This document shows positions 12,095 to 34,232 of a DNA stretch of 64,000 nucleotides, in pieces (position 1 is the stretch's first letter; each line of letters begins with the position of its first letter). The position numbers and the translations under genes were made by a program. Below the pieces are notes generated by a model. The model ran no database searches. It was not told the DNA's origin and saw only the letters and a program-made list of their open reading frames with translations. The stretch lies in assembly GCF_900129025.1 (NCBI RefSeq), contig NZ_FQUM01000003.1, positions 124,001 through 188,000 on the forward strand, read 5' to 3'. Origin of the DNA: Mariniphaga anaerophila (lineage in GTDB: Bacteria > Bacteroidota > Bacteroidia > Bacteroidales > Prolixibacteraceae).

Positions 12095-13012
12095 ATGTTA
12101 TCCATGAAGGAATACAGTTTAACAAATCTACAGGAACTCGAAGCAGAAGCCATTCATATTATCCGTGAAGTAGCTGCTGAATTTGAAAACCCGGTAATGC
12201 TATATTCGATAGGGAAAGACTCGTCGGTTATGGTAAGGTTGGCAGAAAAAGCCTTTTACCCCGGGAAAGTTCCCTTTCCGCTTATGCACATCGACTCGAA
12301 ATGGAAATTCCGCGAAATGATAGAATTCCGCGACCGTTATGCCAAAGAAAAAGGTTGGGATTTAATTGTGCATTACAACAAAAAAGGTTTCGAAAGCGGA
12401 ATTGGCCCGTTCACCCATGGGAGCAAAGTACATACCGACGTGATGAAAACACAGGCATTACTTGAAGGGCTCTCAAAATATAAATTTGATGCAGCATTTG
12501 GAGGAGCCCGCCGGGACGAAGAAAAATCGCGTGCAAAAGAACGTATTTTCTCGTTCCGCGACCAGTTTCACCAATGGGATCCTAAAAATCAGCGGCCCGA
12601 ATTATGGAACATTTACAACGCGAAAGTTCATAAGGGAGAATCTATCAGGGTTTTCCCGCTGAGCAACTGGACTGAGCTAGACATCTGGCAGTACATCAGG
12701 CTGGAGAACATACCGATTGTTCCACTCTATTTTGCCAAAGAGCGCCCTGTGGTTAACATGGACGGCAACCTGATTATGGTAGACGACGACCGCATGCCGA
12801 AAGAGCTGGCCGCCAAAGCCGAAATGCGCAAAGTACGTTTCCGCACACTGGGATGCTACCCGCTTACAGGTGCTGTTGAATCGGAAGCAGACACCATCGA
12901 AAAAATTGTGGAAGAGATGATGACAGTAACTGTTTCGGAACGTACTACCCGGGTCATCGATTTTGACCAGGATGCAAGTATGGAACAAAAAAAGCGGGAA
13001 GGCTACTTTTAG
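12095..13012 (+). CDS. cysD: Sulfate adenylyltransferase subunit 2
   Basis: The small, catalytic subunit of ATP sulfurylase (305 residues, usual length about 300), which makes adenylyl sulfate (APS) from ATP and sulfate. The ATP pyrophosphatase loop is [18 protein letters not shown] at about residues 40-57; further conserved parts are [34 protein letters not shown] and the typical C-terminus [15 protein letters not shown]. The start could be ATG 12095 or the ATG at 12104 (MKEYSL). It is followed 72 bases later by its GTPase partner cysNC and preceded by an SLC13 permease, so uptake and activation of sulfate are linked. Confidence 0.96.
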
Positions 13013-13084
13013 CCAAAGCTTCCTGTTGCCTAATTCTGATTAACAGGCAATAAGAACAAAAAAACAAGAAATAAGCACAACAAC

Positions 13085-15004
13085 ATGACTACAAATAATC
13101 TTGACATAAAAGCTTTCCTTGATCAGGATCAGAAAAAAGATTTGTTACGCCTTTTGACTGCCGGCTCGGTTGACGATGGAAAATCGACCCTCATTGGCCG
13201 CCTGATGTTCGACAGTAAAATGTTGTACGAAGATCAGCTTGCTGCTCTGGAGCGCGACAGCAAACGCATTGGGCATGCGGGAGAAGACATCGATTATGCC
13301 TTGCTACTGGACGGACTGAAAGCAGAACGCGAGCAGGGAATTACAATTGATGTTGCCTACAGGTATTTCTCAACCGCCAAACGAAAATTTATTATTGCTG
13401 ACACTCCCGGGCACGAACAGTACACCCGGAACATGATAACCGGCGGTTCTACTGCCAACCTGGCCATTATTCTTATTGATGCCACAAAAGGAGTAATTAC
13501 GCAAACCCGGCGGCACACGTTCCTGGTTTCGTTACTTGGAATAAAACACGTTGTGCTGGCAGTGAACAAGATGGATCTGGTGGATTACAAACAGAAAGTG
13601 TTTGATGACATCTGCGCCGATTACAAAAACTTTGTCACCCAACTTGATATTCCTGACGTTGAATTTATTCCGCTCTCAGCTTTAAAAGGCGACAATGTGG
13701 TGGAAATCTCAACTAATATGCCGTGGTATCACGGAAAAAGCGTGCTCGAATTTCTGGAAGCTGTTCACATCAGCAGCGACCGTAATTATGCAGATTTCCG
13801 TTTCCCGGTGCAATACGTGCTGCGCCCCGACCGCGACTTCCGCGGTTTTTCAGGACAAGTAGCTTCGGGAATTGTTAAGCCTGGCGATACAGTAATGGCT
13901 TTGCCTTCGAGAAAAACTTCGAAGGTAAAATCCATCCCCACGTACGACGGAAACCTCAAAAAGGCTTTTCCTCCACAATCGGTAACACTGGTTTTGGAAG
14001 ATGAAATTGATATTTCGAGAGGTGAAATGCTGGTAAACCCGGATAATCTGCCGCGCATGGAGCGCCATTTCGAAGCCATGCTGGTTTGGATGGATGAAAC
14101 GCCGATGGATCTTTCCACTCAGTTTTTTCTGAAACAGACCACTAATACCACGCGCACCCACATCGACATGTTGCGTTACAAAGTAGATGTAAACTCACTG
14201 GAAAAATCGGAGGTAGAAAAACTTACCCTGAATGAAATTGGAAGGGCCGTTCTTACAACTGCCAAACCATTGTTTTTCGACCCGTACAAAAAAAATAAAA
14301 GCACCGGCTCGTTTGTACTCATTCATCCGGTTACGAACAACACCGTAGCGGTAGGGATGATTCTGGACAAACTGGACAGCAAAAACCTGCCATCGCGAAT
14401 ATCTGATATTGATAAAGAAGCCATAAAAAAAGGGAAATCCCTGGTTTCTACTGAAAGCCGCCAGAAAAAGATGAACCAGAAAGGGGCTACTTTGTGGTTT
14501 ACCGGCCTTCACGGTTCAGGGAAAAATGAATTGGCATTCAGCCTGGAAAAAAGCCTGTTCGAAAACGGTGCAACTGCAGTACTTCTCGACGGAAGTTCGG
14601 TTCGCTCCGGCCTTAACAGAGAATTGGATTACTCGCCGGCCGACCGCGCAGAAAACCTTCGCAGGGTAGCACATGTTGCCAAAATATTAAACGACCAGGG
14701 CATTATTGCCATTTGCTCTTTCATCTCGCCAAACGACGCGATAAGAAATCAGGTTGCTGATATTATAGGAAAAGAGCAGTTCCACCTGTTTTACATGGAA
14801 GCCTCGCTGGAGTATTGCCGCAACAATAAACCCGAGCTCTACGAAAAAGCAGAAAAAGGAGAGGCAGACAATGTTCCGGGAGTTGACTTGGATTACGATG
14901 CTCCTGCCAATGCTGTGTTAACTTTCAACCCGGCAGAAAACGAGCTCAATATCGACAGAATACTGGATTACCTTGAAGAGAACAAGGTTTTCCCGTTAAA
15001 ATAA
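13085..15004 (+). CDS. cysNC: Bifunctional sulfate adenylyltransferase subunit 1 / adenylylsulfate kinase-like fusion
   Basis: A 639-residue fusion. Residues 1-440 are the CysN GTPase that drives ATP sulfurylase: G1 [15 protein letters not shown], switch [22 protein letters not shown], then two beta-barrel domains. Residues 465-639 are a CysC fold: [52 protein letters not shown]. The kinase half departs from family consensus at sites that matter: the P-loop GKST reads GKNE (Lys480 kept, following Ser changed to Asn), DGDNVRHGL reads DGSSVRSGL, and RDPKGLY reads NNKPELY. CysN activity is expected; APS kinase activity is doubtful. No separate cysC is in the window. The epimerase gene follows after 9 bases, so the two are probably co-transcribed. 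Confidence 0.93.
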
Positions 15005-15013
15005 TTCAAAAAA

Positions 15014-16021
15014 ATGAAAGTATTAGTTACCGGAGCAGCTGGGTTTATAGGATTTCATCTTATTAACCGGCTTCTGGAAAAAGGTTATCAGGTTGTAGGA
15101 ATTGATAACATTAACGACTATTATTCCACCGAATTAAAATTTGCACGGCTCAGGCAGGCAGGTATTTCCGAAGAAGCCTCCGAGTGGCATAAAAAAATAA
15201 CCGGCAGCAACCCCGAATATTCATTTCTCAGGATGAATCTGGAAGATGAAAAAGAGATCAACCAACTGTTTGAACAGGAAAACTTTGATTTGGTTTGCAA
15301 TTTGGCTGCTCAGGCCGGAGTACGGTACAGCATTGAAAACCCAAAAGCCTATATTCAAAGTAATGTGGTAGGATTCTTTAACATTCTGGAAGCATGTCGC
15401 CACAACAACATCAAGCATCTGGTTTATGCCAGCTCATCCAGTGTGTACGGGAACAGCAAAAAAATGCCGCTTTCCACAACCGATTTTGTTGACAATCCTG
15501 TTAGTTTATATGCTGCCACAAAAAAGAGCAACGAACTGATGGCGCATACCTACAGTCATCTGTATGGAATTCCGACAACCGGGCTACGTTTTTTTACAGT
15601 TTACGGCCCGTGGGGACGACCAGACATGGCCTACTTTAATTTTACGCGTGCTATCCTGGCAAAACAACCAATTAAGGTTTTCAACCACGGCGATTTGTAC
15701 CGCGACTTTACATACATTGATGATATTGTTGAAGGGATAGAAAAAATACTTCCGGCGCCGCCCGCAAGCACCCCGCCTTATAAAGTTTACAACATCGGAA
15801 ATTCTTCTCCGGTTAAACTGATGGATTTTATTGAGACAATAGAAAAAACCCTTGGCAAAGAAGCTCAAAAAGAATTTTACGACATGCAGCCCGGTGATGT
15901 GTATAAAACATATGCTGACGTAAGTGAGCTGGAGAAAAACTTCGGGTACTCGCCAAACACATCTTTACAGAAAGGAATTGGAGAGTTTGTTGCCTGGTAC
16001 AAATCGTTTTATAAAGAGTAA
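15014..16021 (+). CDS. NAD-dependent epimerase, UDP-glucuronate 4-epimerase type
   Basis: A 335-residue extended short-chain dehydrogenase that most resembles UDP-glucuronate 4-epimerases (CapI/LpsL group), which convert UDP-GlcA to UDP-GalA for polysaccharides. The NAD loop is VTGAAGFIGFHLINRLL; the group marker GIDNINDYYSTELKFARL follows; NLAAQAGVRYSIENPKAYIQSN, the catalytic Ser region YASSSSVYG and the YAATKKSNE Tyr-Lys pair are all present, then RFFTVYGPWGRPDMAY and DFTYIDDIVEGI. It is placed 9 bases after cysNC. The pairing of sulfate activation and uronic-acid supply may point to an acidic surface glycan, which is inference only. Confidence 0.9.
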   Translation: MKVLVTGAAGFIGFHLINRLLEKGYQVVGIDNINDYYSTELKFARLRQAGISEEASEWHKKITGSNPEYSFLRMNLEDEKEINQLFEQENFDLVCNLAAQAGVRYSIENPKAYIQSNVVGFFNILEACRHNNIKHLVYASSSSVYGNSKKMPLSTTDFVDNPVSLYAATKKSNELMAHTYSHLYGIPTTGLRFFTVYGPWGRPDMAYFNFTRAILAKQPIKVFNHGDLYRDFTYIDDIVEGIEKILPAPPASTPPYKVYNIGNSSPVKLMDFIETIEKTLGKEAQKEFYDMQPGDVYKTYADVSELEKNFGYSPNTSLQKGIGEFVAWYKSFYKE

Positions 16022-17642: not shown

Positions 17643-18932
17643 TCAAAATTCAAGTTTTACAGCGCCCTTGCTTCGAATAAACAATTTGTGGCATTTGCCT
17701 TCTCCGTAAACATGCTCCAGCGTTTTCACATATTCATCCAGTTTTTCCTTGGGAACAAAAGCCTGAATAGTTCCACCGAAACCACCACCGTGAACACGCC
17801 ATGCGCCGCTTCCTTTCAATACCATTTCGCTAAGTGCCAGCGCCAAGGAAACAACCTGCTCGTCTTTATGAACGATGTCGTAAATATTCTGATTGTACAT
17901 AAAAGAACTGTACCCCGATTCTACCACCATTTTCAGGAAAGACTGAAAATCGTTGTTTTCGAGAGCCGCAACCTGATCGGCAACACGCTGATTGTCTCCA
18001 TGAAAATGGTAAGCGCGCAAAATGGCCCGGTCGCCTGTTTTTTTACGGATTTCAGGAATTTTTTCTACAATTTGTGGCCAGGTTACTTCCCGCAAAACAG
18101 TTGCACCGAGTTCGGCTGCCACCGATTTCATTTCTGTTGGAAGAGACGCGTATTCAGCCTGCGATGCAGCATCGTCGTGTCCGCCGCCAACATCGGTAAT
18201 TACCAATGAAAAACCAGTTGACACAAAATCAAAATCCACTTCTTTTACAACAGGATTTGCCGGATCTTTAAAATCAATAGTAATTAATCCGCCCACAGAG
18301 CAGGCCGTTTGATCCATCAGCCCGCATGGTTTTCCAAAGTAGTTGTTCTCTGACCACTGTCCGATAATGGCATTTTCTACAGCCGACATTTTTCCATCGT
18401 TAAACAATTCGCTGACGATTGCACCTACCAGTACCTCAAACGATGCAGAAGAACTGAGTCCGGAACCTTTTGGCACCCGCCCGTCGATACATGCATCGAA
18501 GCCGCCAATCTCGTAACCATTCTCTTTCATTTTGGCACAAATACCTTTTACCAACGAGCTGGACGTGTAAAAATTTGCCTCATCAATAACCAATTCGGAA
18601 ATATCTACCTGGAACTCCGGGTAACCTGTTGATTTTATCCGAATAATATTAGTGCCGTTAGGAGCGGCAACTGCAATATTATCGAGGTTTACTGCACCGG
18701 CAAGAACGCGCCCGTGATTATGGTCAGTATGATTTCCTCCTATTTCTGTTCGTCCGGGAGAACTGAACAACTGAACATCGTCTGTTCCATAGGCTTTCTG
18801 AAAATCATTCATCAAACCTTCATACCGTTCGGCCTGTTCCTTCAATACTGTTTTATCGGTTCCGTATAACTCATTAAAAAGCAGATTATTTCCGCCGTTT
18901 ATTTTTTCTGTTAAACTGCAAATTTTTGTCAT
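17643..18932 (-). CDS. galK: Galactokinase
   Basis: A 429-residue GHMP kinase (family usually 380-430) that phosphorylates alpha-D-galactose at C1. The galactokinase signature GRTEIGGNHTDHNHGRVLAGA is at about residues 60-80, the ATP-binding GHMP motif PKGSGLSSSASFEVL at about 154-168, and the C-terminal GHMP motif RVHGGGFGGTIQAFVP near 380. The substrate-recognition GGNHTDHNHG and the catalytic-base region CGLMDQTACSVGG are intact. It is downstream of the gntR gene and upstream of the transporter; a 19-base operator candidate and a TATATTTG box lie in its promoter region. No galT is visible in the window, although Leloir conversion needs one. Confidence 0.95.
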   Translation of the reverse strand: MTKICSLTEKINGGNNLLFNELYGTDKTVLKEQAERYEGLMNDFQKAYGTDDVQLFSSPGRTEIGGNHTDHNHGRVLAGAVNLDNIAVAAPNGTNIIRIKSTGYPEFQVDISELVIDEANFYTSSSLVKGICAKMKENGYEIGGFDACIDGRVPKGSGLSSSASFEVLVGAIVSELFNDGKMSAVENAIIGQWSENNYFGKPCGLMDQTACSVGGLITIDFKDPANPVVKEVDFDFVSTGFSLVITDVGGGHDDAASQAEYASLPTEMKSVAAELGATVLREVTWPQIVEKIPEIRKKTGDRAILRAYHFHGDNQRVADQVAALENNDFQSFLKMVVESGYSSFMYNQNIYDIVHKDEQVVSLALALSEMVLKGSGAWRVHGGGFGGTIQAFVPKEKLDEYVKTLEHVYGEGKCHKLFIRSKGAVKLEF

Positions 18933-21495: not shown

Positions 21496-23403
21496 ATGAA
21501 AACCATCATCGAACTTTTTGAAACAACAGTTGCTAACTATCCCAACAACATCTACCTCTGGGAAAAAAAAGACGGAAAATTCCAGGGAACTTCCTATGAA
21601 GAAACCAGAGTTCAGGTTTTAAAACTCGCTGCCGGGTTAATTTCCATCGGAATGCAGAAAGGTGATCGTTCCGGACTTGTATCAGATGGACGAAACGACT
21701 GGATTATCAGCGAATTAGGGATGCTCTACGCAGGTGGCATCAATGTTCCACTCTCCATACGACTTCAAGAAAACGAACTGATATTCAGACTAAAACACAG
21801 CGGAAGCAAATATATTTTTGTTTCCGGGGTTCACGCCGCCAAAGTGGAAGCTATTCGTTCTTCTTTGCCCGAACTGGAAAAAATTATTTTTTTAGATGGG
21901 AAAGAGAACCCCGGAGAAAACGATATCAACTACAGCGACCTGATGCAAACAGGCGAAGAGTACCTGAAAACCCATGCGAAGGAAGTTGATGCTGTCTGGA
22001 AAAATATTCAGCCCGACGATGTGGCTAATATTAGTTACACATCAGGAACAACGGCAGATCCAAAAGGAATTATGCTTACCCACCTGAATTATGCAGCAAA
22101 TGTAGTGCAATCAAATACGCTGATGGAGCTGAAATCTGACTGGCGTACCATCGCTATTCTGCCGTGGGATCATGCCTTTGCGCACACCTGTTGCTTGTAC
22201 GCATTTATGTACAAAGGCGCCAGCATTGCATCGGTTGAAGTGGGAAAAACACCGCTGGAAACGCTAAAAAATATTCCTAAAAACATAAAAGAAATTAAGC
22301 CCACGTTAATGATGAGCGTGCCGGCTTTCTCGAAAAAATTCAAACAAAACATCGAGGGGCAAATCAGAAAAAAAGGAGAAACACTTTACAAAGTTTTTCA
22401 GTTTGCGATCAAGGTTGGGTATGCCCACAACGGCATGGGACACAACAGTGGCAAAGGATGGCGCTTTTTCTTAAAGCCGCTTCAGTGGACATTTGATAAA
22501 ATCTTTTTCAAAAAAATACGGGAAGGGTTTGGCGGAGAGTTGAAATTCTTCATCGGGGGCGGTGCGCTTCTGGATGTAGAACTGCAACGCTTCTTTTACG
22601 CAATTGGTATTCCTATTTGCCAGGGGTACGGATTAACAGAAGCTTCTCCGGTTATCTCATCCAACGCACTTCATGCAATAAAATTCGGGTCTTCGGGCCG
22701 CTTACCCAAGTACCTCGAATTGAAAATTATGGATGACGATGGCAACGAACTGCCAATTGGCCAAAAGGGTGAGATTGTGATAAAAGGTGACAATGTAATG
22801 AAGGGGTACTGGAATAACCCAGATGCCACGGCAGATACAATAAAAGACGGATGGTTGCACACCGGCGACATGGGCTACATGGGGAAAGACGATTTTCTTT
22901 ATGTGCTTGGCCGTTTTAAAAGTCTGCTGATTGGAAATGACGGGGAAAAATTTAGTCCGGAAGGGATTGAAGAAGCGATAGTAGACCAGTCGCCATACAT
23001 TCAGCAGATGATGCTTTACAACAATCAAAATCCGTACACCACAGCAATGGTAGTTCCCGACATTGATGCCATTAACCGCGACCTGAAAAAACAAAACATT
23101 GAACCAGGGAGCGAAGAAGGCAACAAAAAATCGCTGGAAATACTTTCGAAAGAAATTCAGGAATACAAAAAAGGCGGACAGTACGAGGATATGTTCCCAG
23201 AACGCTGGCTACCTGCGGCATTTGTAGTTCTGCCCGAAGCATTTTCACAGGAAAACGAACTGATGAATACAACCATGAAAATGGTACGCGGAAAAATTTG
23301 CGACTACTTTAGCAAAGAGCTTGAATTTTTATACACTCCTCTGGCCCGCAACCTTACCAACGATGTAAATGTTGCTGCCATAAAAAAATGGAACGCCAAA
23401 TAA
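21496..23403 (+). CDS. AMP-dependent long-chain acyl-CoA synthetase/ligase
   Basis: A 635-residue member of the adenylate-forming (ANL) superfamily in the long-chain acyl-CoA synthetase group. The AMP-binding signature is SYTSGTTADPKGIMLTHLNY at about residues 178-197; further motifs are GGGALLDVELQRFFYAIGIPICQGYGLTEASPV and the hinge region GWLHTGDMGYMGKDDFLYVLGRFKSLLIGNDGEKFSPEGIEE. It activates a fatty acid through an acyl-AMP and transfers it to CoA. It is the first gene of a four-gene block: the next gene begins 15 bases after its stop. Why a fatty-acid ligase heads a sugar-nucleotide operon is unclear. Confidence 0.9.
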   Translation: MKTIIELFETTVANYPNNIYLWEKKDGKFQGTSYEETRVQVLKLAAGLISIGMQKGDRSGLVSDGRNDWIISELGMLYAGGINVPLSIRLQENELIFRLKHSGSKYIFVSGVHAAKVEAIRSSLPELEKIIFLDGKENPGENDINYSDLMQTGEEYLKTHAKEVDAVWKNIQPDDVANISYTSGTTADPKGIMLTHLNYAANVVQSNTLMELKSDWRTIAILPWDHAFAHTCCLYAFMYKGASIASVEVGKTPLETLKNIPKNIKEIKPTLMMSVPAFSKKFKQNIEGQIRKKGETLYKVFQFAIKVGYAHNGMGHNSGKGWRFFLKPLQWTFDKIFFKKIREGFGGELKFFIGGGALLDVELQRFFYAIGIPICQGYGLTEASPVISSNALHAIKFGSSGRLPKYLELKIMDDDGNELPIGQKGEIVIKGDNVMKGYWNNPDATADTIKDGWLHTGDMGYMGKDDFLYVLGRFKSLLIGNDGEKFSPEGIEEAIVDQSPYIQQMMLYNNQNPYTTAMVVPDIDAINRDLKKQNIEPGSEEGNKKSLEILSKEIQEYKKGGQYEDMFPERWLPAAFVVLPEAFSQENELMNTTMKMVRGKICDYFSKELEFLYTPLARNLTNDVNVAAIKKWNAK

Positions 23404-23418
23404 TCAAAATCAACAAAA

Positions 23419-24417
23419 ATGATTATTGAAACTTTTTGCTACCCAAGGGCAGCGGTTATCGGAAACCCGTCTGACGGATATTTCGGGAAAACCATTGCCT
23501 TTCTTTTCTCAAATTTTCAGGCAAAAGTTCAGCTCTACCAAACTCCAGAGCTTGATATTCAGCCACAGCGGCTTGACAAAACCAGTTTCAGCAGCATTAA
23601 GGAACTGGTAGAAAACGTTAACAGCTCTGGCTATTACGGTGGAATCAGGCTGTTAAAAGCCACCATAAAAGTTTTTTACGATTACTGCCAGGAATGCCAC
23701 ATTCAGTTGGATAAACGAAATTTCACAATCAGGTACGACTCCAACATTCCGTTACGCCTGGGCCTTGCAGGAAGCAGCGCCATAATCACCGCATGTATGA
23801 AAGCGTTGATTTCGTTTTACGGCGTAGCAATTCCCCACCCTATCCTTGCCAATCTGGTGCTTAGTGTTGAAGACAAAGAGCTGGGCATTGCTGCCGGACT
23901 GCAAGACAGAGTTGTACAAGCATACGGCCAGCCTGTTTATATGGATTTCGACAAAGAAACCATGCAAAAACAGGGGTTTGGAAACTACGAAGTTTTAGAT
24001 GCATCACAGTTTCCGAATATGTACATCGCATTTAGAAAAAACCTGTCAGAAGGTACCGAAGTACTTCACAACAACCTGCGGGCACGGTTCAACATTGGCG
24101 AACAAAAAGTACTTGATGCCATGGGAAAATGGGCCGGGTACACCGAAAACTTCCGGGAAGCACTAAAATCACACGATTGCAAAACCATGCATCAACTGAT
24201 AGATGCCAATTTTGATTTACGCCGCAGCCTTATTGCCATTACCAAAGGAAACATAGAAATGGTGGAAGCGGCTCGTTCTGTTGGTGCTTCGGCAAAATTT
24301 ACGGGTTCGGGAGGAGCAATTATCGGCACATACAAAGACGAGCAGATGTATAACAAACTGGCCGAAGCTCTGGCAAAAAAAGATATTGAAGTGATAAAAC
24401 CCAACATTGTAAACTAA
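23419..24417 (+). CDS. GHMP kinase resembling glucuronokinase
   Basis: A 332-residue GHMP-superfamily kinase. The N-terminal RAAVIGNPSDGYFGKTIAFLF, the ATP loop LRLGLAGSSAIITACMKAL, the segment KELGIAAGLQDRVVQAYGQPVYMDF and the C-terminal ARSVGASAKFTGSGGAIIGTY closely parallel, from memory, plant glucuronokinase, which makes glucuronate-1-phosphate. Galactokinase and mevalonate-kinase hallmarks are absent. It sits 15 bases after the acyl-CoA synthetase and 7 bases before a GalU-like uridylyltransferase, the partner needed to turn a sugar-1-phosphate into a UDP-sugar. The superfamily call is firm; glucuronate (or galacturonate) as substrate is inference from similarity and context. Confidence 0.85.
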   Translation: MIIETFCYPRAAVIGNPSDGYFGKTIAFLFSNFQAKVQLYQTPELDIQPQRLDKTSFSSIKELVENVNSSGYYGGIRLLKATIKVFYDYCQECHIQLDKRNFTIRYDSNIPLRLGLAGSSAIITACMKALISFYGVAIPHPILANLVLSVEDKELGIAAGLQDRVVQAYGQPVYMDFDKETMQKQGFGNYEVLDASQFPNMYIAFRKNLSEGTEVLHNNLRARFNIGEQKVLDAMGKWAGYTENFREALKSHDCKTMHQLIDANFDLRRSLIAITKGNIEMVEAARSVGASAKFTGSGGAIIGTYKDEQMYNKLAEALAKKDIEVIKPNIVN

Positions 24418-24424
24418 TTTTAAA

Positions 24425-25294
24425 ATGATAAAAAAAGCAGTAATTCCTGCCGCCGGATGGGGAACACGATTCTTACCCATCACAAAATCTCAACCCAAAG
24501 AAATGATTCCAATCGTGGATACCCCGGTTATTCAATATGTGGTAGAGGAAGCAGTGGCAAGCGGAATTACAGACATTCTGATGATAATTGGAAAAGGGAA
24601 ACGGGCAATTGAAGAACATTTCGACCGCAGCCCGCAACTGGAAGAATCTCTTATTGCAAAAAAACAGCTCGGATTACTGGAGCAAATCAAAAAAATATCG
24701 AACCTGGCAAACATTCATTTCATTTGGCAGAAAGAGATGAACGGATTGGGAGACGCCATCAGTTATGCCCGGTACCACGTGGGCCGCGAACCATTTGCCG
24801 TGCTACTCGGAGACACGCTCATCAGCGGAAAAGGTGCACCAATTACAAAGCAACTTATTGATGTTTACGACCGCTACAAAAGTTCGGTTGTGGCTCTCGA
24901 AGAAGTACCGCCCGAAAATGTTCATCGCTACGGCGTTATTCAGGGTAAAAAACTGGAAAACAATGTTCTGATTGCAGAAGATTTTATTGAAAAACCGGCA
25001 AAAGAAGAAGCGCCTTCCAACCTGGCAATTGCAAGCAGGTATGTTTTTACGCCTGAGATTTTCGATTACCTTGACGAAACAAAACCGGGAAAGAACAACG
25101 AAATACAGCTTACCGATGCCATGAGAGAAATGGTAAAAAAATACGCAATGTATGGTTTGCAGTTTCAGGGCACCCGATACGATATCGGGAACAAACTCGA
25201 CTTTCTGAAAACCAATATTATTTACGGGCTGGAACACGAAGAGATTGGAGCTCCTTTGCGTGAATGGTTAAGAGAATTTTCAAAAAAACTATAA
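24425..25294 (+). CDS. galU: UTP--glucose-1-phosphate uridylyltransferase (GalU-like)
   Basis: A 289-residue nucleotidyltransferase of the GalU family (usual length 280-300). The nucleotide-binding opening is PAAGWGTRFLPITKSQPKEMIPIVDTPV, followed by QYVVEEAVASGITDILMIIGKGKRAIEEHFDRS, AVLLGDTLISG with the metal-binding Asp, and GNKLDFLKTNIIYGL. Canonical GalU has GLGTRFLPATKAIPKEML, so the Trp and the TKSQ segment are small departures. It may make UDP-glucose, but immediate linkage to a glucuronokinase-like gene raises the possibility that it accepts glucuronate-1-phosphate. The next gene starts 9 bases on. Confidence 0.9.
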   Translation: MIKKAVIPAAGWGTRFLPITKSQPKEMIPIVDTPVIQYVVEEAVASGITDILMIIGKGKRAIEEHFDRSPQLEESLIAKKQLGLLEQIKKISNLANIHFIWQKEMNGLGDAISYARYHVGREPFAVLLGDTLISGKGAPITKQLIDVYDRYKSSVVALEEVPPENVHRYGVIQGKKLENNVLIAEDFIEKPAKEEAPSNLAIASRYVFTPEIFDYLDETKPGKNNEIQLTDAMREMVKKYAMYGLQFQGTRYDIGNKLDFLKTNIIYGLEHEEIGAPLREWLREFSKKL

Positions 25295-25303
25295 AACCAG
25301 AAA

Positions 25304-26218
25304 ATGAACAGAAAAAATTTCATCAGGTCGGCTTCCCTCATTGCAGGGGCATCGGCAATAGTTTCTCCTTTTGTTTCATCGGCAAATTCAAGAAGCAACG
25401 AAACTGCCAAAATGCCCTTAAAAAAAGGACTGGGCTTTGGAATGATTAAGGAAGAGTTGTCCCTTGTTGATAAGTTTAAACTGGTGAAAGATCTGGGATT
25501 TGACGGTATAGAACTGAACAGCCCTACCGACCTTAACAAATCAGAAATTCTGAAAGCGAAAGAGATTTCGGGAATAGAACTGCCAAGCGTTGTTAACAGC
25601 GACCACTGGCGCAAACCGCTTTCCGACCCGAATCCGGAAGTGAGGCAGCAATGTATTCAGTCGGTTGCACAATCGTTACTAGATGCAAAAGATTTTGATG
25701 CAGACACGGTTCTGGTTGTTCCGGGAGTTGTTAATGAAAAAATTCCCTACGAACAGGCATATTATACGGCAATGAACTCCATTAGGGAACTCATTCCTTA
25801 TGCCGAAAAAACCGGAGTTCAGATTGCCCTGGAAAACGTATGGAACAACTTTCTGCTAAGTCCCATAGAAGCCAAACGTTTTGTCGACGAAATTAACCAT
25901 CCTCTGGTTGGATGGTATTTTGACGTGGGTAACATTTTGCGTTACGGCTGGCCTGAACATTGGATTCAAACCCTGAATTCCCGAATAATGAAACTGCATG
26001 TAAAAGAGTTCAGCCGAAAATTGATGAACGAAGAAGGTTTACGAAAAGGATTTCAGGTTAAGCTAACGGAAGGCGATAACAACTGGCCGGTTGTAATGCA
26101 GGCTGTAAAAAACATCAACTACAAAGGTGGGTGGATTACAGCAGAGGTTAGTGGCGGGGACAAAACCCGGCTAAAAGAAATTTCCGAACGGATGGATAAA
26201 ATTATTGGTTACCTATAA
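25304..26218 (+). CDS. Exported sugar phosphate isomerase/epimerase-like TIM-barrel protein
   Basis: A 304-residue protein with a Tat-like or Sec signal (MNRKNFIRSASLIAGASAIVSPF) and a xylose-isomerase-like TIM barrel: LVKDLGFDGIELNSPTDL, DADTVLVVPGVV, TGVQIALENVWNNFLLSP (a metal-ligand Glu), WYFDVGNILRYGWPEHWI (Asp) and KLHVKEFSRKL. These match the sugar phosphate isomerase/epimerase (AP endonuclease 2) superfamily, which binds a divalent metal and epimerises or isomerises sugars. It is the last gene of the operon and is followed by a terminator. Its substrate is unknown; export would place it on free sugars in the periplasm. Confidence 0.85.
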   Translation: MNRKNFIRSASLIAGASAIVSPFVSSANSRSNETAKMPLKKGLGFGMIKEELSLVDKFKLVKDLGFDGIELNSPTDLNKSEILKAKEISGIELPSVVNSDHWRKPLSDPNPEVRQQCIQSVAQSLLDAKDFDADTVLVVPGVVNEKIPYEQAYYTAMNSIRELIPYAEKTGVQIALENVWNNFLLSPIEAKRFVDEINHPLVGWYFDVGNILRYGWPEHWIQTLNSRIMKLHVKEFSRKLMNEEGLRKGFQVKLTEGDNNWPVVMQAVKNINYKGGWITAEVSGGDKTRLKEISERMDKIIGYL

Positions 26219-30056: not shown

Positions 30057-33000
30057 ATGAAACATATTTTACTTTTCTTCGCATTTATAATGGCTGTAAC
30101 AGCCGTTAATGCACAACTGCCAACTTCCTACACACTTGGCGGCTCAGAAGTTGAAATAAACGATGGCTGTATAACGAGCTGTGAGCCATTGCCCGGGTTA
30201 CTTATTAATCTCACCATTCCCAAAACAATACATAAAAACGGGCAGGCCATTACCATTACCAGTATAGCCGACAATGTGTTCAGTAACAAAAACTTATTAA
30301 GTCTCAAACTTGCAAATAGTTTGATAAGTATTGGTGAAAATGCATTTGCCAATAATAAGCTGGTAAGTGTAACACTTTCTGAGGCACTGAGGTACATTGG
30401 CGAGAGTGCATTTTGGGGCAACAGCAACCTCACATCCATCAAATTACCCAAACATGCCACAACCCCCGGCTTCGAAGGATGGATTGACGGCTTCGGGGAT
30501 AAAGTGCAACCAGACGAAAATGGCAACTATATCCTAAGCAATACTTTTCGTGCTTACGCTGCCATATTGCCGTACACCCTTTCAGACGATGATGTTGAAG
30601 TGGTAAATGGGCACATAGTCAGTTGCAAAACCCTAAAAGGCACTAAAATAACCATTCCCCAAATACTGGACGGGCAAACAATTACCGACATAAATGGCTA
30701 CAAATTTGCCCGAAGGATGCTGGTAAGTGTAAATCTTCCCAATAGCATTATAAACATTGACGATAATGCATTCCTGAGTAACAGTTTAACAAGCATAACG
30801 TTTCCTGAAGGGGTGCTAAAGATTGGATCACATGCGTTTGCCTCTAACAACTTAACGAGTGTAACACTTGCTGAAACAATTATAAGTATTGGAGAAAAAG
30901 CATTTGCCTCTAATAATGATCTTTTGTCAATTAACCTGCCCAAACATGAGTCAACACCCGGTTTTGAAGGATGGATTGACAGTAACGGGCAGCAAGTTGC
31001 AAAAACCGAAGACGGTAACTACCCCATTGGCAATTTCGATATCTCTTACACTGCAATAGTACCCTATACCCTTACTGCCGACGACGTAACACTGGATAAC
31101 GAGGGCTGCATTATAAGCTGTAAACCACTAACAGGCACCAAACTACACATACCACAAACTTTAAATAAAAATGGGACAGAAATCACCATTACCGGGATAG
31201 GCCTGAGTGTGTTTGGTGGCAGGGGGCTCATGGAGATTACGCTTCCAAACAGTGTAACAAGCATTAGCGAAAGCTCCTTCGCCAATAACGACTTAACAAA
31301 CCTAATTCTTCCTGAAGGGCTGATAAGTATCGGAGGATTTGCTTTTTCAGGAAACAAGTTAACAGAAGTAACATTCCCGAACAGCTTAACAAGCATCGGG
31401 AAAAATGCATTTTATTATAATAGCCTAACGAGCGTAAAGTTACCCGAATCGCTGACATTTATAGACAAATACGCTTTTTCTTATAATTCCTTTGCATCCA
31501 TGAACCTGCCCAAACATGCGGCAACTCCAGGATTTACAGGATGGGTTAACGGTATGGAACAGCCGGTGCCGCTAACAGACAACAACTATACTGTAACCAA
31601 TTTTTCAACCTCTTACACTGCCCAAATAAATTCTAACTTCTACCCCCTCACAGCTGCCGATATTACAGTGGATGAAAACGGTGTGATTACATCCTGCAAT
31701 ATCACCGATTTTAATACCGAAGACTACGCATTTGGAAATATCGTTATCCCCCAAACCATCAATAAAGAGGGCGTTGATATAGCCATTACCGGCATTAACG
31801 ATGCCGTTTTTATGCATCTTAGCATGGCAAGTGTAGTAGTCCCCGAAGGAGTAAAAAACATTGGAGATAAGGCTTTTTATAGCTGCCATTTAACCAGCGT
31901 TACGCTTCCCGAAGGATTACAAAACATTGGAAGCTGGGCATTCGGCTATAACGACTTAACAAGCGTAATGCTTCCTAACGGACTACTAAACATTTGCGAC
32001 TACGCGTTTACCTATAACAAGTTAACAAGTGTAACTCTTTCGGAAACATTAATTATCATTGACGAAAGTGCATTCGCCAACAATACCAACCTTACATCAA
32101 TTAACCTGTCCAGGCACGAGTCAACCCCAAGTTTCGAAGGATGGATTGACAGCAATAAGCAAAAGGTGACAAAAACCGAAGAGGGCAACTATACCATATC
32201 AAATTTCTATGTTCCCTACTACGCCATAATACCCTATACTCTTACTGCCGATGACGTAACAATTGACAACGAAGGGTGTATTGTAAGTTGCAATATACTG
32301 AAAGGCACAAAGCTAACCATACCCCAAACCCTAAATAAAAACGGGACGGAAATCACCATTACCGGAATAGGCCAAGGTGTGTTTGAAAACAGGGGGCTGA
32401 TAAGTGTTGTGTTTCCGCACAGCATAACAAGCATTGGCGCAAACGCATTTGAAATGAACAACATAGCAAGCATAACACTTCCGTCCTCACTGACAAGCAT
32501 TGAGTACCGGGCTTTTGCTTATAACTGGCTAACAAGCATAACCCTTCCTGAAACAGTGGCGAGCATTGGCGAATCCGCTTTTAGTAGTAACAAGTTATTA
32601 AACGTTACACTTTCTGAACAACTGCTAAGTATTGGTAAAAACGCATTTGCTTATAATGGTAATCTAGCATCCGTCAACCTGCCCAAGCACGAAGCAACAC
32701 CCGGTTTCACCGGATGGAAAGATGGTAACGGGTCAATGGTATATCTAAACGGTGGTAATTATACCGTAAATGTTTTTACAACTTCATACACCGCCCTAAT
32801 CTCAGACCGCCCGGCCCCTGCTGCCCCAACACTGGCAGGTAAAACATACAACACCATTACTCTTCATGCAGTGGAAGGTTGCGAGTACAGTATTAATGGA
32901 GGTACAACCTGGCAGAGTGAAGTTCTTTTCGATGGACTGGAAAGCAATACAACCTATACGTTTGTACAACGCTATTTCGAAACCGATACTGATTATGCAT

Positions 33001-34232
33001 CACCGGCAAGTGAACCTCTGACCGTTGTAACCGACAAAGCTCAACAAGCAGCTCCTGCCGCTCCAACGCTGGCTTCAAAAACAGAAAGTAGTATTACCTT
33101 GAATGCAGTGGCAGGTTACGAATACAGTATTAATGGAGGTACAACCTGGCAAAGTGAAGTTCTTTTCGATGGATTGGAAAGCAATACAACCTATACGTTT
33201 GTACAACGCTATTTCGAAACCGATACTGATTATGCGTCACCGGTAAGTGAACCACTGACCGTTGTAACCGACAAAGCGCAGCAAGCAGCTCCTGCGGCAC
33301 CCACTCTCGCTTCAAAAACAGAAAGCAGTATTACCTTGAATGCAGTGGCAGGTTGCGAATACAGTATGGATGGCGGTACAACCTGGCAAAGTGAAGTTCT
33401 TTTCGATGGATTGGAAAGCAATACAACCTATACGTTTGTACAACGTTATTTCGAAACCAACTCAGATTATGCGTCACCGGCAAGTGTCCCTCTGACCGTT
33501 GTAACCGACAAAGCGCAGCAAGCTGCTCCTGCGGCACCCACACTCGCTTCAAAAACAGAAAGCAGTATTACACTAATTGCAGTAACAGGTTGCGAATACA
33601 GTATTGATGGTGGGACAACCTGGCAAAACGATGTTCTTTTCGATGGACTGGAAAGTGGCACATCTTATACCTTAACGCAACGTTATGCAAAAACCAATAC
33701 AGACGATGCTTCTCCGGCAAGTGCCCCATTGACCGTTGTAACCGACAAAGCGCAGCAAGCTGCTCCCTCGGCACCCACTCTGGCAAGCAAAACCGACAGC
33801 AGCATTGTTCTGAACGTGTTGGAAGGGTGCGAGTACAGCATCGACAACGGAACAACCTGGCAAGACACTCCTCTTTTTAAAGGGTTGGATGATAACACAG
33901 AGTATATGCTCATCCAGCGCTATGCCGAAACAGCCACGTATAATGCTTCGCCGGCAAGCGACCCTTTAATGGTAACAACCGATATCTCGACGGCAATTGA
34001 CAAAATTGAAGCCGGAAGTATTGAATTATATCCGAACCCTGCGAGCCATAAAATTACCGTTGTCAATGCGCCGGAAGGCAGTTCCCTGGTTTTATATAAT
34101 ATTTCAGGAGCGATAGTACTTCAAACAATTATAACCGACAATCAAATTCCAATAGATATAAGCGGTCTAACACCCGGCGTTTATCTTGTACAAATTGGTA
34201 CAACAACTCAAAAGCTGGTAGTCCGAAAATAA
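30057..34232 (+). CDS. BspA-like leucine-rich-repeat protein with Fn3-like repeats and T9SS sorting domain
   Basis: A 1391-residue secreted protein. The signal peptide is MKHILLFFAFIMAVTAVNA. Residues 25-915 hold five large modules starting near 25, 173, 337, 529 and 727, each opening with Y-x-L-x-x-x-D-[VI] and a cysteine pair (GCIISCKPL-like), carrying LRR_5/BspA repeats (LTSVTLPEGLxxIGxxAF) and closing on INLPKHxxTPGFEGWID. Residues about 920-1314 are five tandem 79-residue Fn3-like units (YSINGGTTWQ, ESNTTYTFVQRY). The final 65 residues (IELYPNPASHKITVVN, LTPGVYLVQIGTTTQKLVV) are a type A T9SS sorting domain, which predicts export and surface attachment. BspA-like proteins often bind host or matrix proteins; the ligand here is unknown. 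Confidence 0.9.
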   Translation: MKHILLFFAFIMAVTAVNAQLPTSYTLGGSEVEINDGCITSCEPLPGLLINLTIPKTIHKNGQAITITSIADNVFSNKNLLSLKLANSLISIGENAFANNKLVSVTLSEALRYIGESAFWGNSNLTSIKLPKHATTPGFEGWIDGFGDKVQPDENGNYILSNTFRAYAAILPYTLSDDDVEVVNGHIVSCKTLKGTKITIPQILDGQTITDINGYKFARRMLVSVNLPNSIINIDDNAFLSNSLTSITFPEGVLKIGSHAFASNNLTSVTLAETIISIGEKAFASNNDLLSINLPKHESTPGFEGWIDSNGQQVAKTEDGNYPIGNFDISYTAIVPYTLTADDVTLDNEGCIISCKPLTGTKLHIPQTLNKNGTEITITGIGLSVFGGRGLMEITLPNSVTSISESSFANNDLTNLILPEGLISIGGFAFSGNKLTEVTFPNSLTSIGKNAFYYNSLTSVKLPESLTFIDKYAFSYNSFASMNLPKHAATPGFTGWVNGMEQPVPLTDNNYTVTNFSTSYTAQINSNFYPLTAADITVDENGVITSCNITDFNTEDYAFGNIVIPQTINKEGVDIAITGINDAVFMHLSMASVVVPEGVKNIGDKAFYSCHLTSVTLPEGLQNIGSWAFGYNDLTSVMLPNGLLNICDYAFTYNKLTSVTLSETLIIIDESAFANNTNLTSINLSRHESTPSFEGWIDSNKQKVTKTEEGNYTISNFYVPYYAIIPYTLTADDVTIDNEGCIVSCNILKGTKLTIPQTLNKNGTEITITGIGQGVFENRGLISVVFPHSITSIGANAFEMNNIASITLPSSLTSIEYRAFAYNWLTSITLPETVASIGESAFSSNKLLNVTLSEQLLSIGKNAFAYNGNLASVNLPKHEATPGFTGWKDGNGSMVYLNGGNYTVNVFTTSYTALISDRPAPAAPTLAGKTYNTITLHAVEGCEYSINGGTTWQSEVLFDGLESNTTYTFVQRYFETDTDYASPASEPLTVVTDKAQQAAPAAPTLASKTESSITLNAVAGYEYSINGGTTWQSEVLFDGLESNTTYTFVQRYFETDTDYASPVSEPLTVVTDKAQQAAPAAPTLASKTESSITLNAVAGCEYSMDGGTTWQSEVLFDGLESNTTYTFVQRYFETNSDYASPASVPLTVVTDKAQQAAPAAPTLASKTESSITLIAVTGCEYSIDGGTTWQNDVLFDGLESGTSYTLTQRYAKTNTDDASPASAPLTVVTDKAQQAAPSAPTLASKTDSSIVLNVLEGCEYSIDNGTTWQDTPLFKGLDDNTEYMLIQRYAETATYNASPASDPLMVTTDISTAIDKIEAGSIELYPNPASHKITVVNAPEGSSLVLYNISGAIVLQTIITDNQIPIDISGLTPGVYLVQIGTTTQKLVVRK
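32814..33998 (+). repeat. Five tandem 237-base coding repeats
   Basis: The GCTCCTGC-type repeat start recurs at 32814, 33051, 33288, 33525 and 33762, exactly 237 bases (79 codons) apart. Copies 1 to 3 are nearly identical over most of their length, copy 4 is slightly diverged and copy 5 is the most diverged. The pattern indicates recent tandem duplication, so copy number may vary between strains. All copies stay in frame. Confidence 0.9.

What the first reader, a model, noticed from the sequence alone, without database searches (positions are those of the whole stretch)
23419..25294. Candidate bacterial UDP-glucuronate salvage pair: glucuronokinase-like GHMP kinase plus GalU-like uridylyltransferase
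The kinase has segments (IGNPSDGYFGKTI, KELGIAAGLQDRVVQAYGQPVYMDF, ARSVGASAKFTGSGG) that, from memory, mirror plant glucuronokinase far better than galactokinase or mevalonate-pathway kinases. Seven bases later a GalU-like uridylyltransferase follows, the activity needed to turn GlcA-1-P into UDP-GlcA. A UDP-glucuronate 4-epimerase-like gene is at 15014-16021. In plants these steps form the inositol-oxygenation salvage route; in bacteria UDP-GlcA is normally made by UDP-glucose dehydrogenase. If right, this is an uncommon uronic-acid recycling route, headed by an acyl-CoA synthetase and ending in an exported TIM-barrel sugar isomerase.
Basis: partly seen in the sequence, partly recalled or inferred. 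Interest (0 to 1): 0.75.

Follow-up and report, generated by a model that had tools for sequence, protein, structure and literature searches.

The report
Bacterial glucuronate-to-UDP-glucuronate gene pair
Some Bacteroidota carry a two-gene cassette, a sugar kinase that looks like plant glucuronokinase next to a modified GalU, that probably turns free glucuronic acid straight into UDP-glucuronate, a recycling route known until now from plants and some animals.

Summary
The genes at 23419-24417 (GHMP kinase) and 24425-25294 (GalU-type uridylyltransferase, UTase) are intact and 7 bp apart.

They behave as a unit. The UTase lies beside the kinase on the same strand in 31 of 32 related loci from many Bacteroidota families, in either gene order. 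No other window gene is kept beyond close kin. In one 395-genome Bacteroidota sample, the 11 genomes with the kinase are exactly the 11 with a GalU.

The kinase matches no curated equivalog. The paired UTases lack the acidic residue that contacts glucose in some GalUs (0 of 33 acidic against 20 of 24 unpaired) and all have Ala203 (33 of 33 against 2 of 24).

Best reading: glucuronate -> GlcA-1-P -> UDP-GlcA salvage. The inositol-oxygenase link is not supported, since no MIOX was found in this genome. The acyl-CoA synthetase, TIM-barrel and epimerase genes are not conserved parts. Substrates are inferred, not assayed.

The parts
23419..24417 (+). GHMP kinase, proposed glucuronate 1-kinase (glucuronokinase type). 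Motif 1 R10...G15-N16-P-S-D19...K24; phosphate loop G115-L-A-G-S-S; proposed catalytic D163 followed by R164; motif 3 K293-F-T-G-S-G-G
   Evidence: ORF, Pfam GHMP N and C domains, 33-member alignment with R10, N16, D19, K24, D163, R164, R268 and R286 invariant (33 of 33). AlphaFold model mean pLDDT 89.6, GHMP fold. The catalytic role of D163 is assigned by analogy with galactokinase (recalled).
24425..25294 (+). GalU-type sugar-1-phosphate uridylyltransferase, proposed GlcA-1-P uridylyltransferase; Mg ligand D130 followed by T131 in place of the usual acidic residue; A203 beside the sugar-contacting I202
   Evidence: TIGR01099 364.1, cut-off 326.8; only GalU over the cut-off in the genome; residue comparison; contacts taken from PMC11796359 and PMC7961091 (passages) and carried over by alignment
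21496..23403 (+). Long-chain acyl-CoA synthetase-like gene directly upstream; a lineage-specific neighbour, not part of the conserved unit
   Evidence: upstream in 9 of 32 loci only, all from relatives with kinase identity of 67% or more
15014..16021 (+). UDP-glucuronate 4-epimerase-like SDR; possible user of UDP-GlcA, not shown to be linked
   Evidence: in 1 of 32 fetched neighbourhoods, as a partial copy at the locus edge
25304..26218 (+). TIM-barrel (PF01261) protein with N-terminal export signal; not a conserved part
   Evidence: a partial copy in 1 of 32 loci, separated from the UTase by another gene; the signal is read from the sequence

Best explanation
The two genes encode a two-step salvage route for free D-glucuronic acid. 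The GHMP kinase phosphorylates the anomeric hydroxyl of GlcA with ATP (GlcA-1-P). The adjacent GalU-family enzyme then transfers UMP from UTP to GlcA-1-P, giving UDP-GlcA and pyrophosphate. UDP-GlcA would feed envelope glycans directly, or be 4-epimerised or decarboxylated. Shown here: the pair behaves as one inherited unit, the kinase fits no curated GHMP equivalog, and the UTase belongs to GalUs with altered sugar-site residues. Inferred: GlcA as the kinase substrate and GlcA-1-P as the UTase substrate. GlcA probably comes from outside or from glycan turnover, not from inositol, because no MIOX was found.
For: Adjacency and translational-coupling spacing: same strand in 31 of 32 loci, median gap 2 bp, 26 of 31 gaps at most 20 bp, both gene orders; also together on a Rufibacter plasmid. 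Exact co-occurrence: 11 kinase genomes = 11 GalU genomes in the same 395-genome sample (hypergeometric 1.3e-21 ignoring relatedness; 6 family codes). One GalU at E <= 1e-60 in each of 20 kinase genomes, adjacent in 19 of 20. The kinase passes no curated GHMP equivalog, and the genome's third GHMP gene is IspE, so a mevalonate kinase is not expected. A recalled AtGlcAK1 sequence aligns with all 32 loci's kinases (39-47%), with the window kinase at 43% (E 2e-84) and with the window galactokinase-like protein only at E 3e-4 over 107 residues. Paired UTases: residue 131 is T/S/V in 33 of 33 against D/E in 20 of 24 unpaired GalUs; Ala203 in 33 of 33 against 2 of 24. Residue 131 is a glucose contact in PaUGP and YngB. 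Loss of an acidic contact suits a uronate.
Against: No characterised glucuronokinase sequence was available in any tool I used; the plant comparison rests on memory and entered a call only after the bacterial alignment had been shown. E. coli GalU has V at position 131 and is a UDP-Glc enzyme, and Klebsiella V138D/V138A keep 61-67% activity, so residue 131 is suggestive only. The paired UTase is the only GalU, with no PF01704 enzyme, in a genome that also has a UDP-glucose dehydrogenase-like gene, so it may make UDP-Glc as well. One kinase genome (G190) has the two genes on different contigs. Whether the pairing arose once or twice is unresolved (three label changes, two forced by starred branches, one of them the unlinked G190 enzyme; AU p 0.233). 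The kinase tree with outgroups did not resolve the family.
Confidence: 0.7

Rival explanations
1. Same two-step logic, different sugar: the kinase phosphorylates another free sugar at C1 (galacturonate, glucose, galactose, xylose or arabinose), and the GalU-type partner makes the matching UDP-sugar.
For: Pairing and co-occurrence fit any sugar-1-kinase. Substrate specificity has not been measured. Plant USP, the usual partner in plants, is promiscuous (PMC6329318 passages).
Against: [quoted passage not shown] Zebrafish glucuronokinase used GlcA alone of 9 sugars tested. The loss of acidic glucose contacts in the UTase argues, weakly, against neutral hexoses.
Confidence: 0.21
2. The UTase is simply the genome's UDP-glucose pyrophosphorylase, and the kinase is an unrelated neighbour.
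For: It scores above the GalU equivalog cut-off, is the only GalU in the genome, and the genome has a UDP-glucose dehydrogenase-like gene that needs UDP-Glc.
Against: GalU is absent at E <= 1e-60 from the 384 of 395 Bacteroidota genomes that lack the kinase, and PF01704 matches only 10 of 395, so most of the phylum makes UDP-Glc, if at all, some other way. An unrelated neighbour would not be expected to co-occur 11 of 11 and be adjacent in 31 of 32 loci in either order.
Confidence: 0.06
3. The kinase is a mevalonate, heptose-7-phosphate or ordinary galactokinase that recruited GalU.
For: It has weak profile hits to these families (mevalonate kinase 61 bits, HddA 42, GalK 34). The nearest solved structures are heptose and mevalonate kinases.
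Against: All scores lie far below curated cut-offs (163, 600, 443). The genome has an IspE gene (MEP pathway) and a separate galactokinase-like gene at 17643. As a comparison, a plasmid HddA-like gene scores 353 bits (itself below the 600 cut-off) and sits with a sedoheptulose-7-P isomerase and a nucleotidyltransferase gene; the genes around the window pair include no such isomerase.
Confidence: 0.03

Closest known systems
Plant glucuronokinase GlcAK1 (At3g01640) with UDP-sugar pyrophosphorylase (USP)
   Same: GHMP kinase making GlcA-1-P, followed by a UTP-dependent pyrophosphorylase making UDP-GlcA. The recalled plant kinase aligns along nearly the whole bacterial kinase.
   Different: In plants the partner is USP, in a separate gene of a different family (the assignment to PF01704 is recalled), and GlcA comes from myo-inositol via MIOX. 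Here the partner is a GalU-family enzyme seven bases away and no MIOX was found in the genome.
Zebrafish bifunctional glucuronokinase/putative pyrophosphorylase DrGKUP (PMC3938481; abstract, sections 21, 24, 25 and 26 and passages seen)
   Same: Glucuronokinase domain physically joined to a nucleotidyltransferase, for conversion of GlcA to UDP-GlcA.
   Different: Fused in one protein with the transferase at the N-terminus. Its pyrophosphorylase activity was barely detectable. The authors report that the bacterial and archaeal members of that transferase group consist of the transferase domain only.
GalU (TIGR01099) UTP-glucose-1-phosphate uridylyltransferase
   Same: Family score, length, and the conserved catalytic and uridyl-binding motifs.
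   Different: The paired enzymes lack the acidic residue after the Mg Asp and have an invariant Ala203; in the Bacteroidota sample GalU occurs only in genomes with the kinase.
HddA D-glycero-D-manno-heptose 7-phosphate kinase
   Same: GHMP fold; nearest solved structures by sequence profile.
   Different: 41.9 bits against a cut-off of 600; QDR in place of QDQ after the proposed catalytic Asp (seen in the PDB alignments).

Membership tests
Glucuronokinase (GHMP superfamily, EC 2.7.1.43) | GHMP N and C domains with intact motifs | tested here: met
   PF00288 46.7 and PF08544 26.4 bits, above cut-offs; motif residues R10, N16, D19, K24, D163, R164 invariant in 33 of 33; GHMP fold
Glucuronokinase (GHMP superfamily, EC 2.7.1.43) | Full-length similarity to characterised plant or animal glucuronokinase, closer than to other sugar kinases | tested here: inconclusive
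No verified sequence could be fetched, and no solved structure named glucuronokinase is listed. A tree with outgroups was spoiled by saturated branches: IspE fell inside the bacterial family and HddA beside the viral copy.
Glucuronokinase (GHMP superfamily, EC 2.7.1.43) | ATP-dependent phosphorylation of D-GlcA at C1, not other sugars | not testable with these tools
   Needs an enzyme assay
UDP-GlcA salvage pathway | A UTP-dependent sugar-1-phosphate uridylyltransferase partner linked to the kinase | tested here: met
   GalU-family gene adjacent in 31 of 32 loci; identical distribution in 11 of 395 genomes. That it uses GlcA-1-P was not tested.
UDP-GlcA salvage pathway | GlcA supplied by myo-inositol oxygenase | tested here: not met
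   No PF05153 match in this genome; the model passes its cut-off in 28 of 395 Bacteroidota genomes, 3 of them among the 11 kinase genomes
GalU (TIGR01099) | Score above the curated equivalog cut-off | tested here: met
   364.1 against 326.8; five paired enzymes of family f25 fall below it (295.6-304.5 bits)
GalU (TIGR01099) | Acidic glucose-contact residue after the Mg-binding Asp, common though not universal in GalU | tested here: not met
   T131 in the window; 0 of 33 paired enzymes acidic against 20 of 24 unpaired
Galactokinase | Curated galactokinase equivalog score | tested here: not met
   34.2 bits against 443, and 19.2 against 226.65
Mevalonate kinase | Curated equivalog score | tested here: not met
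   61.1 against 163.05; the genome carries an IspE gene above its cut-off
HddA heptose kinase | Curated equivalog score and heptose gene neighbours | tested here: not met
   41.9 against 600, though a plasmid gene in an HddA-like setting also scores below 600 (353); no sugar-phosphate isomerase gene among the ten window proteins around the pair that were scanned

The most novel reading that the evidence does not exclude
A dedicated bacterial glucuronate salvage cassette in which a GalU-family enzyme has been re-tuned to GlcA-1-P by removal of an acidic glucose contact and an invariant small residue beside the sugar. It would be a third, separately recruited partner for glucuronokinase (USP in plants, a fused nucleotidyltransferase in animals, GalU in Bacteroidota). 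The cassette has spread across the phylum by horizontal transfer, including on a plasmid, with a kinase homologue also on a viral contig.
Probability: 0.53. Interest if true: 0.72.

Novelty: new variant of a known kind. Interest (0 to 1): 0.62.

Why it matters
UDP-GlcA in bacteria is thought to come from UDP-glucose dehydrogenase (established view, not tested here). A GlcA-to-UDP-GlcA shortcut would let polysaccharide degraders put uronic acids from food glycans directly into their own envelope glycans, without catabolism. It would give a GalU-family enzyme with a new and predictable specificity, useful for enzymatic synthesis of UDP-GlcA and hyaluronan-type polymers; the partner domain of the zebrafish enzyme was almost inactive in the published assays (PMC3938481 sections 25 and 26). 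It also makes the origin of the plant and animal salvage kinase testable, and it would correct present labels such as GHMP kinase and UTP--glucose-1-phosphate uridylyltransferase (as on the Rufibacter plasmid).

Tried and rejected
Considered and rejected: mevalonate kinase, heptose kinase and galactokinase identities; an inositol-oxygenation route in this genome (MIOX is in 3 of 11 kinase genomes against 25 of 384 others, p 0.036 with two of the three from one family, which is weak); an operon role for the acyl-CoA synthetase, TIM-barrel and epimerase genes.

Led nowhere: an AU test whether the reversed-order family f25 recruited its UTase independently (p 0.233); a kinase tree with IspE, HddA and GalK outgroups (branches of length 10; IspE fell inside the bacterial family, HddA beside the viral copy, and the recalled plant sequence outside them; uninformative); Foldseek, whose best 50 rows were generic GHMP kinases; a GalU on the viral record carrying a kinase homologue (none by PF00483); a review searched for the GalU sugar contacts (nothing useful in the passages shown); a search of held papers for printed glucuronokinase peptides (0 papers). 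No paper on a bacterial glucuronokinase was seen in the listings (20 of 26 shown; 20 of 31; 1 of 1; 15 of 199; 2 of 2; 1 of 1; 6 of 6); the library holds PMC open-licence papers only. Phyla other than Bacteroidota were not systematically searched: the single genome-contig scan used query-specific patterns, and the genome search samples were Bacteroidota.

Full report
What is there. The window is 64 kb of a 5.05 Mb genome (G000). Its closest named relatives by this gene are Bacteroidota: Mariniphaga, Tangfeifania, Maribellus and Draconibacterium. The kinase gene 23419-24417 and the UTase gene 24425-25294 are intact, on the same strand and 7 bp apart. The kinase carries both GHMP domains but scores far below every curated GHMP equivalog listed: mevalonate kinase 61.1 of 163, HddA 41.9 of 600, galactokinase 34.2 of 443. 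The genome has two other GHMP_kinases_N genes: a galactokinase-like gene at 17643-18932 and an IspE (TIGR00154 197.7, cut-off 138.7). The organism therefore appears to use the MEP route, and a mevalonate kinase is not expected. An AlphaFold model from the family alignment (mean pLDDT 89.6) has the GHMP fold; the best Foldseek rows are mevalonate, heptose and galactose kinases with similar E-values (best 50 shown). No entry named glucuronokinase is listed among the solved structures.

The pair is a unit. I collected 32 distinct loci with kinase homologues of 46-91% identity: 14 from a genome-contig scan and 18 from Bacteroidota and order samples (one apparent duplicate, L057, dropped). The UTase is adjacent and on the same strand in 31 of 32, with a median gap of 2 bp and 26 of 31 gaps at most 20 bp. 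The order is kinase then UTase in 26 loci and UTase then kinase in five loci of one family (f25). Neighbours were compared with the window's genes only. Of these, the acyl-CoA synthetase is upstream in 9 of 32 loci (close kin), and the TIM-barrel gene and the epimerase are found in 1 of 32 each, both partial (many flanks are too short to reach the epimerase). The pair also sits on a 235-kb plasmid of Rufibacter tibetensis, annotated GHMP kinase and galU.

Co-occurrence. In a sample of 395 Bacteroidota genomes the kinase (E <= 1e-30) is in 11. In the same sample GalU, TIGR01099 at E <= 1e-60, is in 11. These are the same 11 handles. A hypergeometric value of 1.3e-21 overstates the case because genomes are related; the 11 fall in six family codes. 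An order sample gave the kinase in 10 of 198 genomes, the window's own among them; GalU without the kinase was not sought there. In all 20 kinase genomes from both samples there is exactly one GalU at E <= 1e-60 (G254 has a second, weak match at 7e-23), adjacent in 19; in G190 it lies on another contig. PF01704, the other common UDP-glucose pyrophosphorylase family, matches in 10 of 395 at E <= 0.001, eight of them over its cut-off. So in this phylum GalU is not the general housekeeping enzyme: it travels with the kinase. A caveat follows. In this genome the paired enzyme is the only GalU and there is no PF01704 match, yet a UDP-glucose dehydrogenase-like gene (TIGR03026 480 bits; nearest equivalog TuaD 537 of 700) stands beside an SDR that I take for a UDP-xylose synthase (no equivalog over cut-off). 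The paired enzyme may therefore also make UDP-Glc.

Which sugar. No tool I used held a verified glucuronokinase sequence; the 2010 Arabidopsis paper is not in the library. I aligned a recalled AtGlcAK1 sequence: 43% identity over 332 columns with the window kinase, E 2e-84, and 39-47% with the kinases of all 32 loci, against E 3e-4 over 107 residues with the galactokinase-like protein. The recalled sequence fits the distant relatives L038 and L060 better than the window kinase. I recalled it before fetching those, but it entered a call only after their alignment had been shown, so a reader cannot check the order, and contamination of the memory is not excluded. It remains a lead. The held zebrafish paper says that plant and zebrafish glucuronokinases are surprisingly alike, that Arabidopsis galacturonate kinase is very diverse in sequence, and that zebrafish glucuronokinase used GlcA alone of nine sugars (PMC3938481 sections 24 and 26 read). 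So close similarity to this family would be informative about the substrate.

The UTase pocket. In PaUGP the residue after the Mg-binding Asp (D131) coordinates the glucose moiety and its Ala mutant is almost inactive; in YngB the equivalent is D134 (PMC11796359, PMC7961091, passages seen). In 33 paired UTases (window, 31 loci and the plasmid) this residue is T (25), S (7) or V (1). In 24 unpaired GalUs (E. coli, seven plasmid records and 16 viral contigs) it is D (17), E (3), V (2) or M (2). Position 203, next to the residue whose backbone binds the sugar, is Ala in 33 of 33 against 2 of 24 (Fisher 9e-12 and 8e-14, not corrected for relatedness). The window kinase found no homologue in the DNA held around the unpaired genes (30 loci screened, E <= 1e-3; six plasmid loci have flanks of only 300 bp, but the plasmid search found the kinase in Rufibacter alone at E <= 1e-20). 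The unlinked GalU of G190 has T and A as well. Removing a negative charge fits a substrate that carries a C6 carboxylate. Against this, E. coli has V at 131 and Klebsiella GalU tolerates V138A and V138D (61-67% activity). Which hydroxyl the Asp contacts was not stated in the passages I saw. The two paired clades look separate in the trees, but one clade is not rejected (AU p 0.233), so convergent change is not shown.

Source and use of the sugar. MIOX is absent here by a model that passes its cut-off in 28 of 395 Bacteroidota genomes; 3 of 11 kinase genomes have it. Inositol is therefore not a general source. Glycan breakdown or uptake is the likely source (inference; no uronate uptake or catabolism genes were sought). 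Possible users of UDP-GlcA are the epimerase-like gene at 15014 and the SDR beside the dehydrogenase (inference).

Verdict. A kinase-UTase cassette is shown; GlcA specificity is probable (about 0.70) and unassayed. The reaction sequence is the known plant and animal salvage route; the bacterial setting and the GalU-family partner are new as far as the held papers show (listings).

Noticed in passing
L086:3755-4741 (viral contig IMGVR_UViG_3300017963_003169, 48.4 kb): A viral contig encodes a 328-aa kinase homologue (37% to the window). Of three neighbours scanned, one has a weak PfkB match (PF00294) and two have no Pfam match; no PF00483 nucleotidyltransferase was found in the record.
   Followed up: partly
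Rufibacter tibetensis plasmid NZ_CP012644.1 (L063:6001-7939): The kinase-galU pair sits on a 235-kb plasmid typed as mobilizable, which could let the cassette spread.
   Followed up: partly
window 12095-16021: A CysD-like gene (PF01507) and a CysN-like gene with a C-terminal APS kinase domain (PF00009, PF01583) run into the epimerase-like gene 9 bp later, a possible sulfated-glycan context.
   Followed up: no
window 17643-18932: A 429-aa galactokinase-like protein lies below every NCBIfam galactokinase cut-off listed (best 166.9 of 499) and has GNHTD where the galactokinases I recall have GEHTD; its order with a transporter, GntR regulator and galM gene is kept in 6 of 32 loci.
   Followed up: no
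window 30057-34232: A 1391-aa protein with BspA-type leucine-rich repeats (PF13306) and a secretion-system sorting tail (PF18962), with similar repeats of about 80 residues towards the C-terminus (read from sequence).
   Followed up: no
Bacteroidota sample: 384 of 395 Bacteroidota genomes have no GalU at E <= 1e-60 and 385 of 395 have no PF01704 match at E <= 0.001, so the phylum's usual UDP-glucose pyrophosphorylase is not obvious from these two families.
   Followed up: no
L056:4196-6993, L058 and L012 downstream of the pair: In L056 the pair is followed by a 3-keto-disaccharide hydrolase (PF06439) and a Gfo/Idh gene and preceded by glycosyltransferase genes; L058 and L012 look alike by eye but were not scanned.
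   Followed up: no
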